Source: Clostridia bacterium | GTDB lineage: Bacteria; Bacillota; Clostridia; DSM-8532; SZUA-474 | Direction: 5' to 3' | Length of the DNA stretch: 32,598 nucleotides | Assembly (NCBI GenBank): GCA_003251775.1 | Contig: QKEK01000248.1 | Coordinates: 1 to 32,598 of the forward strand | Part shown: one piece after another, positions 14,670 to 19,462 of the stretch | Position numbering within the stretch: position 1 is the stretch's first letter | Layout: every line of letters begins with the position of its first letter | The notes under the pieces: generated by a model | The model's input: only the letters and a program-made list of their open reading frames with translations | What the model was told of the DNA's origin: nothing | Database searches by the model: none | Position numbers and translations under genes: made by a program

Positions 14670-15869
14670 TTGGGAAAAGCTCTTATTATTGGTGCTGGTG
14701 GTGTTTCTAATGTAGTAGTACATAAATGCTGTCAGAACCCAGAGGTTTTTGAAGAAATATGTATAGCTAGCAGAACAAAATCTAAATGCGATGCTATGAA
14801 GGAAAAACTAGATGGTGGAAAAACTAAAATACAGACGGCTCAGGTTGATGCAGATAAAACTGAGGAATTAATTACTTTAATTAATCAATTCAAGCCAGAT
14901 ATTGTTATTAATGTGGCATTACCTTATCAGGATTTGACTATTATGGATGCGTGCTTAGCAACAGGTGTGCATTATCTGGATACAGCCAATTACGAACCTC
15001 CAGAGAATCCGAAATTTGAATATAAATGGCAATGGGCATATAAGGAAAAATTCGAGAAGGCTGGTCTTACTGCACTGTTGGGTAGCGGATTTGACCCAGG
15101 TGTAACTGGTGTTTTCACTGCGTATGCCCAAAAGCATTACTTTGATGAAATTCATACAATTGATATTGTTGACGCAAACGCAGGTGACCATGGTTACCCA
15201 TTTGCTACTAATTTTAATCCTGAAATAAACATTCGTGAAATCACAGCCAATGGCAGATACTTTGAAAATGGACAATGGGTTGAGACAAAGCCCTTGGAAT
15301 TTAAAAAAGTGTACGACTTGCCACAGATAGGTCCAAAAAACATTTATCTTCTGTATCATGAAGAATTGGAGTCTTTGGCTGTAAATATTAAGGGTGTTAA
15401 AAAAATTAGATTCTGGATGACCTTTTCTGATAACTATATAAATCACCTAACTGTTCTTCAGAATGTGGGCATGACATCCATTGAGCCTATTAATTTTGAA
15501 GGCAAGGAGATTCAACCACTACAGTTTTTGAAGGCGGTTTTACCAGATCCAGCTTCTTTAGGTCCACGTACAAAGGGTAAAACTAATATTGGCTGTATAA
15601 TACAGGGTACTAAGGATGGTCAGCCTAAAACCTATTATGTTTATAATGTTTGTGTACATGAAGATGCTTATGCCGAGGTAGGCTCACAGGCAATCTCATA
15701 TACAACAGGTGTACCTGCTATGATTGGTGCTAAGCTTATTTTAGAGGGTAAGTGGAGGAAGCCTGGTGTGTTTAATGTAGAGGAATTCGACCCAGATCCA
15801 TTTATGGACGAGCTTAACAAACAGGGCTTGCCATGGCATGAGGACTTTAACCCTACTTTATTGGATTAA
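14670..15869 (+). CDS. Carboxynorspermidine/carboxyspermidine dehydrogenase (saccharopine dehydrogenase family)
   Basis: 399 aa, the family's usual size. It starts with TTG at 14670, supported by GGGAGG 8 nt upstream and by the family N-terminus. ALIIGAGGVSNVVVHKC is the NAD(P)-binding glycine motif at residues 4-20; KPDIVINVALPYQDLTIMDA, HYLDTANYEPPE and GSGFDPGVTGVFTAYAQKH are characteristic of this branch rather than true saccharopine dehydrogenases. The enzyme reductively condenses aspartate beta-semialdehyde with putrescine or 1,3-diaminopropane to form carboxyspermidine or carboxynorspermidine. The next gene is the matching decarboxylase, so together they replace the SAM-dependent SpeD/SpeE route. 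A predicted promoter lies upstream and a 17-bp hairpin separates the two genes. Confidence 0.93.
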   Translation: MGKALIIGAGGVSNVVVHKCCQNPEVFEEICIASRTKSKCDAMKEKLDGGKTKIQTAQVDADKTEELITLINQFKPDIVINVALPYQDLTIMDACLATGVHYLDTANYEPPENPKFEYKWQWAYKEKFEKAGLTALLGSGFDPGVTGVFTAYAQKHYFDEIHTIDIVDANAGDHGYPFATNFNPEINIREITANGRYFENGQWVETKPLEFKKVYDLPQIGPKNIYLLYHEELESLAVNIKGVKKIRFWMTFSDNYINHLTVLQNVGMTSIEPINFEGKEIQPLQFLKAVLPDPASLGPRTKGKTNIGCIIQGTKDGQPKTYYVYNVCVHEDAYAEVGSQAISYTTGVPAMIGAKLILEGKWRKPGVFNVEEFDPDPFMDELNKQGLPWHEDFNPTLLD

Positions 15870-15894
15870 TACTAGGTATCAAAAAAATAGACAC

Positions 15895-15933
15895 AATGTA
15901 TAAATAACCGCGTTAAGCGGTTTTTTATACATT
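15895..15933. terminator. Strong hairpin between the two polyamine genes (terminator or attenuator)
   Basis: AATGTATAAATAACCGC (15895-15911) pairs with GCGGTTTTTTATACATT (15917-15933), 17 bp with one mismatch and a 5-nt loop (GTTAA). The GC-rich top followed by six T residues resembles an intrinsic terminator on the plus strand. It ends 21 nt before the nspC start, so it may lower nspC expression relative to the upstream gene. Confidence 0.75.
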
Positions 15934-15954
15934 TGACATTGGAGGCAAATTACT

Positions 15955-17091
15955 ATGATAAAGGATTTAACAAATGTACAAACACCAGCGTACATTGTAG
16001 ATAAAAGATTATTAAGAAAAAATCTGGAGATACTAAACACCGTTCAGGAAAAAACAGGCTGTAAGATACTATTAGCACTTAAGGGCTTCTCCATGCACGC
16101 CTTATTTCCTATGGTGGGAGAATATCTAGCAGGCATTACCTCCAGTTCCTTGTTTGAGGCAAGACTAGGCTATGAGAAAATGGGTAAAGAGGTACATATC
16201 TATGCACCTGCTTATCAGGAGCAGGAATTTGATGAGCTGTTAAGCTATTGTGACCATATAGTATTTAATTCTGTTCACCAGTATAATAAATATAAGAACA
16301 AGGTTATGGCATATACCTCAAAAAGAGTTGAATGTGGTTTGCGTGTAAATCCAGAGTATTCAGAAATCAAAACACCATTATATGACCCTTGCTATGCCAA
16401 TTCCAGACTAGGTGTTACAGCAAGCAATCTTAACGAAAATGATCTAGAAGGATTAGATGGCATACACTTTCATACCATGTGTGAGCAGAATTCTGATACA
16501 CTTGAAAGAACTATGAAGGTTATAGAAGAAAAATTCGCTAAATATCTATACAAGGTTAAATGGGTAAACTTCGGAGGAGGCCATCATATTACTCGACCAG
16601 ACTATGATATCAATAAATTAATTAATGTTATTAATAGTGTAAAAGAAAAATATAATGTTGAGGTTTATTTAGAGCCAGGTGAGGCTATACCGTTAAATAC
16701 TGGTTTTCTCGTTGCAAGTGTACTTGATATAGTTGATAACGGTATGAACATCGCTATACTTGACACTTCGGCAGCATGCCATATGCCTGACGTAATTGAA
16801 ATGCCCTACCGCCCTGAGATTATAGGTGCTGGTAAGTCTGGTGAATACAAGCATACCTACCGTTTGGGTGGAATGACCTGCCTTGCTGGTGATGTTATAG
16901 GGGACTACTCTTTTATGGAGCCTTTACAGATAGGACAAAAGCTAGTATTCTGCGATATGGCACATTATACAATGGTTAAGAATAATATGTTTAATGGAGT
17001 TAATCTACCATTGATAGCAACTATCGATGATAATGGTATTGAAATAATACGTGAATTTAATTTTGATGATTATAAAAATAGATTGTCCTGA
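15955..17091 (+). CDS. nspC: Carboxynorspermidine/carboxyspermidine decarboxylase
   Basis: 378 aa, ATG with GGAGG 9 nt upstream. A PLP-dependent fold-III (alanine racemase-like) decarboxylase: the PLP lysine is K43 in LLALKGFSMHALFP, GIHFHTMCEQNSDTLE carries the family His-rich loop, WVNFGGGHHITRPDYD is the phosphate-binding glycine loop, EPGEAIPLNTGFL the PLP-ring loop, and CLAGDVIGDYSF (Cys near 309) the active-site cysteine from the partner subunit. It removes the carboxyl group from carboxyspermidine or carboxynorspermidine to give spermidine or norspermidine. It sits 85 nt after the dehydrogenase with a hairpin in the gap and is closed by a convergent hairpin shared with the next gene. 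No putrescine-forming gene is nearby. Confidence 0.95.
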   Translation: MIKDLTNVQTPAYIVDKRLLRKNLEILNTVQEKTGCKILLALKGFSMHALFPMVGEYLAGITSSSLFEARLGYEKMGKEVHIYAPAYQEQEFDELLSYCDHIVFNSVHQYNKYKNKVMAYTSKRVECGLRVNPEYSEIKTPLYDPCYANSRLGVTASNLNENDLEGLDGIHFHTMCEQNSDTLERTMKVIEEKFAKYLYKVKWVNFGGGHHITRPDYDINKLINVINSVKEKYNVEVYLEPGEAIPLNTGFLVASVLDIVDNGMNIAILDTSAACHMPDVIEMPYRPEIIGAGKSGEYKHTYRLGGMTCLAGDVIGDYSFMEPLQIGQKLVFCDMAHYTMVKNNMFNGVNLPLIATIDDNGIEIIREFNFDDYKNRLS

Positions 17092-17141: not shown

Positions 17142-18614
17142 TTAAATATACTTCTCTATACGTTTTGAGGTATTAATCAGCTCTGTAACATTTTTCTTAG
17201 CCTGCTGAGCCTGCTCTATATTCTGATCAGTTTTTTCTCGTGCCTGATTTGCACTGGTATGTGTTTCTGCACACTTGTCTGCAATTCCCTGAATACTAGT
17301 TACCAAACTATTATTATCTAACAGAATTCTATTTATTTTCTCAGATACTAAGTTAACATTAATATTTACATCATCCATTCTGTCAGTTATATTAGTAAAG
17401 ATTTTATTTGTGCTATTTATAAGCTGGTTTTGCTCCTCATTTAATTGCTTAAGCTTAACTACCGCATTAACTGACTCATCTGATTTAGTATCAAGCTCAC
17501 TTATGATAGTTACAATACTGTTAGCAGATTCCTTACTTTGCGTAGCTAGCTTACGAATCTCCTCTGCTACTACTGCAAATCCCTTTCCAGATTCTCCAGC
17601 TCTAGCACTTTCAATAGCTGCGTTTAAGGATAGGAGATTAGTTTGCTCTGAAATAGCTGTAATCATCTGGGTCATACTCTGAATCTTGTTTGAATTCTCC
17701 TTCAACTGAAGCATAATTTTGTAAACATCCTCACTATTAGTATTAACAGCAGATGCCATTTTACTTAATTCATCTATGATTTTTATTCCTTCATCAACAC
17801 TTGATACAGTATCCTTTGTTATTCTTTCCATTACATTTGCACTGTCTGATGCCTCTTTAATGTTCTTGTTAATACCTTGTGTAAGCTGGGATTGCACCTC
17901 AATGCTTGATGAGATTTCAGAAGCACCCATAAAAATCTCATTAACCGCATTTGATACAACATTAGTAGCCTTAGATAAGTCACCAACGATTACGTCCACC
18001 TCTTTAGAATTACGCTCCAATACAGTGGCTATTTCTAGAACATCATTTAATATCTCTTCCTGCTTTTCCTTTTCGTCATGTATCTGTTCAAGCTTCTCAC
18101 GATTTAAAGCGTTCGATAGCTTTGTTGACATAATTAATGAGAAGCTGTATAGAATTACTGCTGCCATTTGAATTGTGAACTCAGTTAACTCGTCAGCACT
18201 ATTTCTTTCATTAACTGTGTAAAAAAATATTACCTTTACTATATTGACCAAAAACGCAACACTACATATAGTTTTTATTAATCGTAAATCAAAATACAAG
18301 AAATACATCAAGGATATAGGAAAAACATACACATATACAGATAGCTTATCGGCAGTAAACATAACAAAAGAATATACTATTAAATACCCTATTAGAGTAA
18401 AATACCTCATTTTGCTACTAGTTTGATCCCGTTTATATACAATACTGGCTATTACTAAGGGCACTACTACGATTACTGAGAATAACAAAACATAATCCAA
18501 TTGCTTAATCTTTTTTATGTATTCTCCAACGTACCCAGCAATTAAAAATAAACCTAGCAACCAATTAATGCTTAGTACAATTCTATTTGTACTTTTAGCT
18601 GTTGAATTCCCCAT
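17142..18614 (-). CDS. Methyl-accepting chemotaxis protein with six-helix membrane N-terminus and no HAMP
   Basis: 490 aa from the ATG at 18614, which has GGGGG 7 nt upstream; an in-frame start at 18656 overlaps the promoter. The first 180 or so residues hold six hydrophobic segments with short loops (for example [76 protein letters not shown]), leaving no room for an extracellular sensor domain. A short linker leads straight into the signalling coiled coil, whose tip ([20 protein letters not shown]) is near residues 325-345. No HAMP motif was recognised. Such receptors may sense membrane state or a ligand in the bilayer (inference). A good promoter lies just upstream; the gene is convergent with nspC. 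Confidence 0.93.
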
Positions 18615-18658
18615 TATATAACCCCCATTTTTGTAGATTAAAACTTTTCCTAACATTT

Positions 18659-18687
18659 ATTATATATTAAAACCTTAATTATATCAA
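18659..18687 (-). promoter_or_regulatory. Predicted sigma-A promoter of the second chemoreceptor gene
   Basis: On the minus strand TTGATA (18687-18682), a 17-nt spacer and TATAAT (18664-18659) give a near-consensus promoter about 45 nt before the ATG. A vegetative-type rather than a sigma-D flagellar promoter is implied. Confidence 0.7.
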
Positions 18688-19252
18688 TTAGTAACTGTTT
18701 TTTTCACAGATGAAGCATGAACTTTCTTCATCACAGTCTCTCAAGTCAGCCTCTCACACTTTTTACTATACTACAGTAGGCATTGGTATTCCGATAGCTC
18801 CCAGATCAGTTCACTTCTCCAATAAGCACTATGCCTCTAAAAATACTCCGTAGCTACCCGACAAATTCGCCCTCCTGGCTCAGTTGTCGGCAAAAATCAT
18901 CCATGCTTTTTGTACGCTACTCCATATTTTTAGACGCTAAGTGCTTCTAGGTTCGTTCAAATGCTCTGTGCACCATCAGAATACCAATGCCTACTACACA
19001 GAAAACTCATTAAGTTTTTAAAGGTCATTAACAAAATTTCCTGACTATAAAACCTTCAACCTCAATGTATGCTTCTGTTATGCAGTCTTTCGAATACTTA
19101 TCAAATGCCACTTCCAGTTCTTTTTATAAACTGATATAATGATTAGTACCACATCCAAATTTTTAAGTAGATTATATTTATACGAAGAATAAAAAAATCG
19201 GCAAGTTAGTATAATTAATGATATCGCGATTCTGTTTGAAAGGAGATTAATT
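18688..19252. other. Gene-free stretch upstream of the second chemoreceptor, holding a palindromic element
   Basis: No reading frame with an RBS was seen apart from short antisense shadows. It contains a small hairpin at 18709-18732 (GATGAAG with CTTCATC), the 219-bp palindromic element at 18776-18994, and, after it, AT-rich sequence with TATAAT-like motifs near 19134 and 19210 that may serve the small gene at 19253. Confidence 0.6.
18776..18994. mobile_element. 219-bp palindromic MITE-like element with 4-bp target duplication
   Basis: The ends GTAGGCATTGGTATTC (18776-18791) and GAATACCAATGCCTAC (18979-18994) are perfect 16-bp terminal inverted repeats. The halves stay in ungapped register: AAGCACT, TCTAAAAATA and GTAGC begin 48, 60 and 74 nt from the left end, and their reverse complements end at the same distances from the right end. 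A central stem CCGACAA/TTGTCGG (18858-18864, 18884-18890) closes the structure. TACA lies directly outside both ends (18772-18775 and 18995-18998), as expected for a target-site duplication. It encodes no protein, so it would need a transposase in trans. Confidence 0.75.
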
Positions 19253-19462
19253 TTGAAATCTTTAAAGCTTTTATTAATAGGCATTATAATGACAACTATA
19301 ATGATTTTCTATTTATCTTACGTTTTTCAACATCCTGAAATGGGATGTTTTGTAAGTCTAGAATTTACACGTACTCTTTATGCAATTTATTTTATAACAA
19401 TGATATCTATGTATGTTTTATACGTGGTTTTTAAAAAACGAGAATCTAGGAATAAAATTTAA
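19253..19462 (+). CDS. Small two-helix membrane protein of unknown function
   Basis: 69 aa from a TTG start supported by a very good ribosome binding site (AAAGGAG, 7 nt upstream). Two membrane helices (LLLIGIIMTTIMIFYLSYVF and LYAIYFITMISMYVLYVVF) are joined by a short loop with HPEMGCFVSLEFTRT, and the protein ends in a basic tail (KKRESRNKI). No similarity recognised. It stands alone downstream of the palindromic element. The RBS and the hydrophobic pattern argue that it is real, but its role (small regulator, holin-like or toxin-like protein) cannot be told. Confidence 0.6.
   Translation: MKSLKLLLIGIIMTTIMIFYLSYVFQHPEMGCFVSLEFTRTLYAIYFITMISMYVLYVVFKKRESRNKI

What the first reader, a model, noticed from the sequence alone, without database searches (positions are those of the whole stretch)
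18776..18994. 219-bp palindromic element with perfect terminal repeats and TACA target duplication
Sixteen-bp perfect terminal inverted repeats, three internal blocks at identical distances (48, 60, 74 nt) from both ends, a central CCGACAA/TTGTCGG stem and a 4-bp duplication TACA at both borders. This is the structure of a MITE that can also fold into one long hairpin RNA. No coding capacity and no recognised insertion sequence family.
Basis: seen in the sequence. Interest (0 to 1): 0.6.

Follow-up and report, generated by a model that had tools for sequence, protein, structure and literature searches.

The report
Mobile repeat carrying TwoAYGGAY RNA
The palindrome is one old copy of a dispersed repeat whose core is a catalogued RNA of unknown function (TwoAYGGAY), and related copies in other bacteria show that this RNA spreads as a hitch-hiker on several different transposons, which gives a solid lead to what the RNA is.

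Summary
The 219-bp palindrome is real (16/16 terminal repeats, fold z -10.7). It is an old, diverged copy of a repeat found at about 20 places in this genome. Its core, on the minus strand, is Rfam RF01731, TwoAYGGAY RNA: 35 bits here, below the cut-off of 43, but five sister copies reach 44-55. It is a three-way junction ending in two A(N)GGA loops, not one hairpin. The TACA "target duplication" is false, because homology between copies runs past both TACAs.

Elsewhere, TwoAYGGAY copies are clearly mobile. Genome G180 has at least 33 copies of a 257-bp element; 24 of 24 tested copies lie between two copies of a terminator-like hairpin, and a sister species has the empty site with one hairpin. 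The ends match an intact IS1182-family transposon. In Roseburia hominis the ends differ and 3 of 4 copies have 6-bp duplications. In this genome a sister subfamily sits in an IS66-type element. So the RNA core is conserved while transposon ends change.

The RNA-level function is inferred: both loops fit CsrA sites, 49 of 51 carrier genomes have CsrA, and the annotated strand folds better in 28 of 30 genomes. I found no paper describing TwoAYGGAY as mobile.

The parts
18705..19021 (.). probable full extent of the repeat unit of the window's subfamily; left limit |CAC(A/G)GATGAAG recurs in four unrelated flanks, right limit approximate
18808..18962 (-). TwoAYGGAY RNA core (RF01731), 35.4 bits, below the gathering score of 43; sister copies in this genome score 44-55
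18776..18791 (+). left terminal inverted repeat = one side of the basal stem
18979..18994 (-). right terminal inverted repeat = other side of the basal stem
18891..18912 (-). terminal hairpin 1, loop CAUGGAUG (AUGGA)
18858..18890 (-). terminal hairpin 2, loop CCAGGAGG (AGGA); its outer stem covaries between subfamilies

Best explanation
Window 18705-19021 is an old, diverged copy of a non-autonomous mobile element whose conserved core is a TwoAYGGAY RNA (RF01731) read from the minus strand. The element moves as DNA: it has no gene of its own and depends on transposases of resident insertion sequences that recognise its ends. Those ends differ by lineage: IS1182-family ends in the G180 genus, where insertion beside a terminator-like hairpin duplicates the whole hairpin; IS66-type ends in a sister subfamily of this genome; other ends with 6-bp duplications in Roseburia hominis; ends of unknown origin in the window's own subfamily. 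What is kept across phyla is the RNA core: a long stem opening into two hairpins with A(N)GGA loops. The most likely role of the core is as RNA that binds CsrA, two sites per copy, either as a decoy or to the benefit of the element. Shown by computation: identity of the core, dispersal, hairpin duplications and an empty site in relatives, matching IS1182 ends. Inferred: mobilisation in trans, transcription, CsrA binding, any effect on the host. My confidence is about 0.85 for 'mobile TwoAYGGAY element', 0.6 for function at RNA level and 0.45 for CsrA as partner.
For: Core identity; 17 of 59 pairs with changes on both sides, covariation above all 500 shuffles. Dispersal; multi-copy in many genomes. 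Transposition in G180: left flank matches its own right flank best in 24 of 24 copies, a hairpin of about 13-29 nt; empty orthologous site with a single hairpin in G460; intact IS1182 transposon in G460 with 15 of 15 identical end bases, itself between two copies of a 27-bp hairpin. IS66-type carrier in this genome. R. hominis 6-bp duplications. RNA strand: 28 of 30 genomes, also with loops neutralised. CsrA: 59 of 60 loops A(N)GGA; 49 of 51 carriers have CsrA against 236 of 348 others, p 3.9e-6; CsrA present in this genome.
Against: The window copy itself scores below Rfam's cut-off, has no recognisable transposon ends and no target duplication. No close relative is held, so no empty site for the window locus. 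No target duplication was found for the IS66-type TwoAYGGAY copies. The CsrA co-occurrence is not corrected for phylogeny; loop conservation is partly ascertainment, since Rfam hits are selected for it; older copies in this genome have lost loops (C285, C187, C293). No expression or binding data.
Confidence: 0.72

Rival explanations
1. Pure DNA parasite: palindrome and hairpins serve transposition only (cruciform or transposase-binding DNA), and the RNA family is a misreading of a DNA repeat.
For: All copies are palindromic and multi-copy; transposase-dependent insertion explains everything seen at DNA level. G-U excess on the RNA strand is not significant.
Against: The core, not the transposon ends, is what is conserved across carriers. 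One strand folds better in 28 of 30 genomes even with loops neutralised. 59 of 60 loops keep A(N)GGA. Carriers almost all have CsrA.
Confidence: 0.28
2. Cis-regulatory leader, as Rfam's type 'Cis-reg' says; in the window it would control the downstream chemotaxis receptor gene (17142-18656, minus strand).
For: The window RNA points towards this gene and ends about 150 nt before its start. Rfam type is Cis-reg.
Against: A good promoter-like site (TTGATA-17-TATAAT, 11 of 12; a consensus match only) lies between element and gene. In G180, 25 of 25 copies are intergenic and in both orientations to their neighbours. Weinberg et al. 2010 marked the family as probably not cis-regulatory.
Confidence: 0.07
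3. Chance or composition-driven palindrome, terminator or REP cluster without mobility.
For: Some relatives carry REP-like hairpins beside the core (G130, G354) or REP-like ends (G306). The window copy has no target duplication.
Against: Sharp limits in unrelated flanks, hairpin duplications, an empty site and a matching autonomous transposon. No terminator-like site in window 18600-19300.
Confidence: 0.04

Closest known systems
TwoAYGGAY RNA (Rfam RF01731; Weinberg et al. 2010, PMC2864571)
   Same: Same consensus structure and loops; sister copies in this genome pass the curated cut-off.
   Different: Known as a candidate RNA of unknown function with type 'Cis-reg'; here shown to be the core of transposable repeats with lineage-specific ends.
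IS1182-family transposons, IS1272 (Wan et al. 2017, PMC5678879)
   Same: Ends of the G180 element equal those of an intact IS1182-family transposon in G460; target is a hairpin of any sequence.
   Different: IS1272 replaces the target hairpin; here the whole hairpin is duplicated, which that paper only draws as an alternative pathway. No IS1182-type transposase in the window's genome.
IS66-family elements and their MITEs
   Same: A sister subfamily in this genome starts at the IS66-type end GTAACTATTCAGACC; an IS66-type MITE here has an 8-bp duplication.
   Different: The window copy does not have these ends.
CsrA-binding sRNAs (CsrB/RsmZ type; hypothesis of PMC4333381)
   Same: GGA in hairpin loops, several sites per RNA.
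   Different: Dispersed mobile copies with two sites each; no evidence of expression or binding.
REPINs and other REP-type elements
   Same: Short, palindromic, non-autonomous, dispersed; G306 copies end in an inverted pair of GAGTCACGGGGACGGTTCTTCTGACTCA (REP-like by my recollection).
   Different: The core is a conserved RNA family; a RAYT transposase was not looked for.

Membership tests
TwoAYGGAY RNA (RF01731) | covariance-model score at or above the curated cut-off of 43 bits | tested here: inconclusive
   window copy 35.4 bits; its homologues in C320, C20, C89, C293 and C88 44-55 bits
TwoAYGGAY RNA (RF01731) | three-way junction with two terminal hairpins carrying AYGGAY loops | tested here: inconclusive
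   structure met; loop 1 AUGGAU, loop 2 reads AGGAGG in the window copy, ACGGAU in sister copies
MITE | multi-copy, short, non-coding, terminal inverted repeats | tested here: met
MITE | target-site duplication | tested here: not met
   TACA in the window lies inside the repeat; met in relatives: G180 hairpins, R. hominis 6 bp
MITE | autonomous partner with the same ends | tested here: inconclusive
   found for G180 element (IS1182) and for the sister subfamily here (IS66-type); none for the window subfamily
IS1182-mobilised element (window copy) | IS1182-type transposase in the genome | tested here: not met
   no PF13751 match in G000
CsrA-binding RNA | A(N)GGA in hairpin loops | tested here: met
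   59 of 60 loops in 30 genomes; window loops AUGGA and AGGA
CsrA-binding RNA | expressed and bound by CsrA | not testable with these tools
   no expression or binding data available here
Cis-regulatory leader | fixed position and orientation before a class of genes | tested here: not met
   both orientations, no shared neighbour pattern in 25 copies of the G180 genus

The most novel reading that the evidence does not exclude
TwoAYGGAY is a mobile RNA module: a CsrA-binding RNA carried by several unrelated transposon families (IS1182-type, IS66-type and others) across Bacillota and gammaproteobacteria, so that its multi-copy, terminator-targeted spread changes the cell's pool of CsrA decoys.
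Probability: 0.35. Interest if true: 0.85.

Novelty: new variant of a known kind. Interest (0 to 1): 0.6.

Why it matters
TwoAYGGAY has been in Rfam without a function. Showing that it is a mobile element explains its scattered distribution and high copy number, argues against the cis-regulatory label, and gives two directly testable claims: mobilisation by IS1182-type transposase beside terminator-like hairpins with hairpin duplication, and binding of CsrA by its loops. Hairpin duplication in 24 of 24 tested copies is also natural evidence for a branch of structure-dependent transposition that had been drawn as a model for IS1272.

Tried and rejected
TACA duplication: rejected, homology between copies crosses it. 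Window element as leader of the receptor gene: unlikely, promoter-like site in between. Terminator in window 18600-19300: none found. Weak Rfam matches SCARNA7 and sR30: chance level. Empty site of the window locus: not testable, none of 60 relatives has the element and no same-family genome is held. Transposon between the two half-elements in contig C183: only an acetyltransferase-like ORF (by eye), so not the autonomous partner. IS1182-type transposase in this genome: none. 8-bp duplications for the IS66-type TwoAYGGAY copies: not found; most copies are cut by contig ends. G-U pair excess as strand test: not significant (46 against 33, p 0.22), while the energy test was. Two calls with untranslatable ranges failed.

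Full report
1. The observation. The palindrome is in the sequence as described: 16-bp perfect terminal repeats, 80-nt ungapped arms at 73% complementarity, fold energy -80.5 kcal/mol against -39.9 for shuffles. Two points are wrong. The centre holds two adjacent hairpins (18858-18890 and 18891-18912), which makes a three-way junction. The TACA copies are not a target duplication: the window is homologous to contig C309 from 71 nt left of the claimed border and to C286 up to 27 nt right of it, so TACA is inside the repeat. The left limit |CAC(A/G)GATGAAG recurs in four unrelated flanks.

2. Copies in this genome. The window copy finds about 16 distinct places (19 rows, three of them self or mirror matches). 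A sister copy finds further places at 92-99% identity. None of 60 genomes of the same order and class has a match, and no genome of the same family is held. The window copy is one of the diverged members (75-81% to the other long copies).

3. What the core is. Rfam places RF01731, TwoAYGGAY RNA, on the minus strand at 18808-18962 (35.4 bits, E 0.00058, below the gathering score of 43). Copies in contigs C320, C20, C89, C293 and C88 score 44-55, above it. On an alignment of nine copies of this genome, 17 of 59 consensus pairs show changes on both sides with pairing kept, and none of 500 shuffles reaches the observed covariation. The outer stem of hairpin 2 changes sequence between subfamilies and keeps pairing. 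The copies are related, so these counts are not independent events.

4. TwoAYGGAY is a repeat in many genomes. In 399 genomes of the phylum, 51 have it, several at the limit of six scored candidates. An exact 20-nt pattern of one loop finds 84 stretches in named genomes, among Lachnospiraceae, Roseburia, Shewanella, Pantoea, Colwellia and Nitrincolaceae, often several per genome; many of a sample score above the curated cut-off. Within the genomes examined, copies are typically 75-98% identical over about 150-320 bp with unrelated flanks and sharp ends.

5. Transposition in relatives. Genome G180 holds at least 33 copies, mostly 91-95% identical. The copies inspected lie between two copies of a hairpin that looks like an intrinsic terminator. 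For 24 of 24 tested copies (23 from G180, one from G460) the left flank matches its own right flank better than any other right flank (median score 18 against 5 for unrelated pairs). One of the 24 (L118) shares only 8 nt, within the range of unrelated pairs, so it is weak on its own; L116 was read by eye because its end is altered. The sister species G460 has the orthologous site without the element and with a single hairpin of different sequence. G460 also has a complete IS1182-family transposon (NF033551, 456 bits; Pfam PF13751 and PF05598) whose ends equal the element's over 15 bp and which itself lies between two copies of a 27-bp hairpin, read from the two contigs that share it. Wan et al. 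2017 (PMC5678879) show that IS1272, of this family, recognises hairpins by structure and replaces them, and they drew duplication of the hairpin as an alternative pathway; that alternative is what is seen here.

6. Different carriers. In this genome the sister subfamily begins at GTAACTATTCAGACC in ten places, two of them altered in the first bases. To its right, in four copies, lie IS66 transposase remnants or ends of the form GTCTGAATAGTTAC. A related MITE in C188 has the 8-bp duplication AAAACACT, but no duplication could be read for the TwoAYGGAY-bearing copies. In Roseburia hominis the ends are TGTTGTTGGTGTCAAAAGG... and three of four copies have 6-bp duplications, ATAAAC, ATTTAT and ATATTA (read from the printed flanks). 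G306 has yet other, REP-like ends. The core is common to all, the ends are not. Whether the core was captured several times or the ends diverged beyond recognition is not decided.

7. RNA-level role. In one copy from each of 30 genomes the annotated strand folds better than its complement in 28 (mean -7.5 kcal/mol, p 6e-6), also with loops neutralised; G-U excess alone is not significant. 59 of 60 terminal loops hold A(N)GGA, the core of CsrA sites, and a CsrA role was proposed from these loops in PMC4333381. 49 of 51 carriers have CsrA, against 236 of 348 non-carriers (p 3.9e-6); the two exceptions are incomplete assemblies (75% and 94%). This is not corrected for phylogeny. The 25 copies examined in the G180 genus are all intergenic and in both orientations to their neighbours, which speaks against a leader role. 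CsrA binding remains an inference.

8. Verdict. The window feature is a decayed copy of a mobile element built around a known RNA family. The individual copy is ordinary; what it reveals about TwoAYGGAY is not described in the papers I could search. The supplement of the 2010 paper could not be read.

Noticed in passing
L187:6283-6852, L210:5001-5574 (Lachnospira sp. MAG RGIG8763): TwoAYGGAY copies come as divergent pairs about 235-240 nt apart, and the pair recurs at several loci: a larger composite unit with four loops.
   Followed up: partly
G000:C183:11789-12482 (L016:1501-2194): A GNAT-like acetyltransferase ORF (by eye) lies between two half-elements of the window's repeat.
   Followed up: partly
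G000:C188:255-500 (L064): IS66-type MITE with GTAACTATTCAGAC ends and a perfect 8-bp duplication AAAACACT, unrelated inside to TwoAYGGAY.
   Followed up: no
L257, L263, L269, L274, L278 (G458): Five IS1182-type transposons whose ends also lie beside hairpins of different sequence; hairpin targeting looks general for this group.
   Followed up: partly
L101-L105 (G130), L129-L133 (G354): REP-like hairpins (CCGCC...GGCGG) directly beside the TwoAYGGAY element, on opposite sides in the two genomes.
   Followed up: no
L108, L109 (G306): Element ends in an inverted pair of GAGTCACGGGGACGGTTCTTCTGACTCA, which resembles REP sequences.
   Followed up: no
window 14670-17091: Saccharopine-dehydrogenase-like and decarboxylase-like genes side by side; looks like a norspermidine/spermidine synthesis pair, from memory.
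   Followed up: no
L024:1004-1294 and L036:1179-1278 (this genome): A T-box leader and a TPP riboswitch lie near two of the repeat copies; probably coincidence.
   Followed up: no
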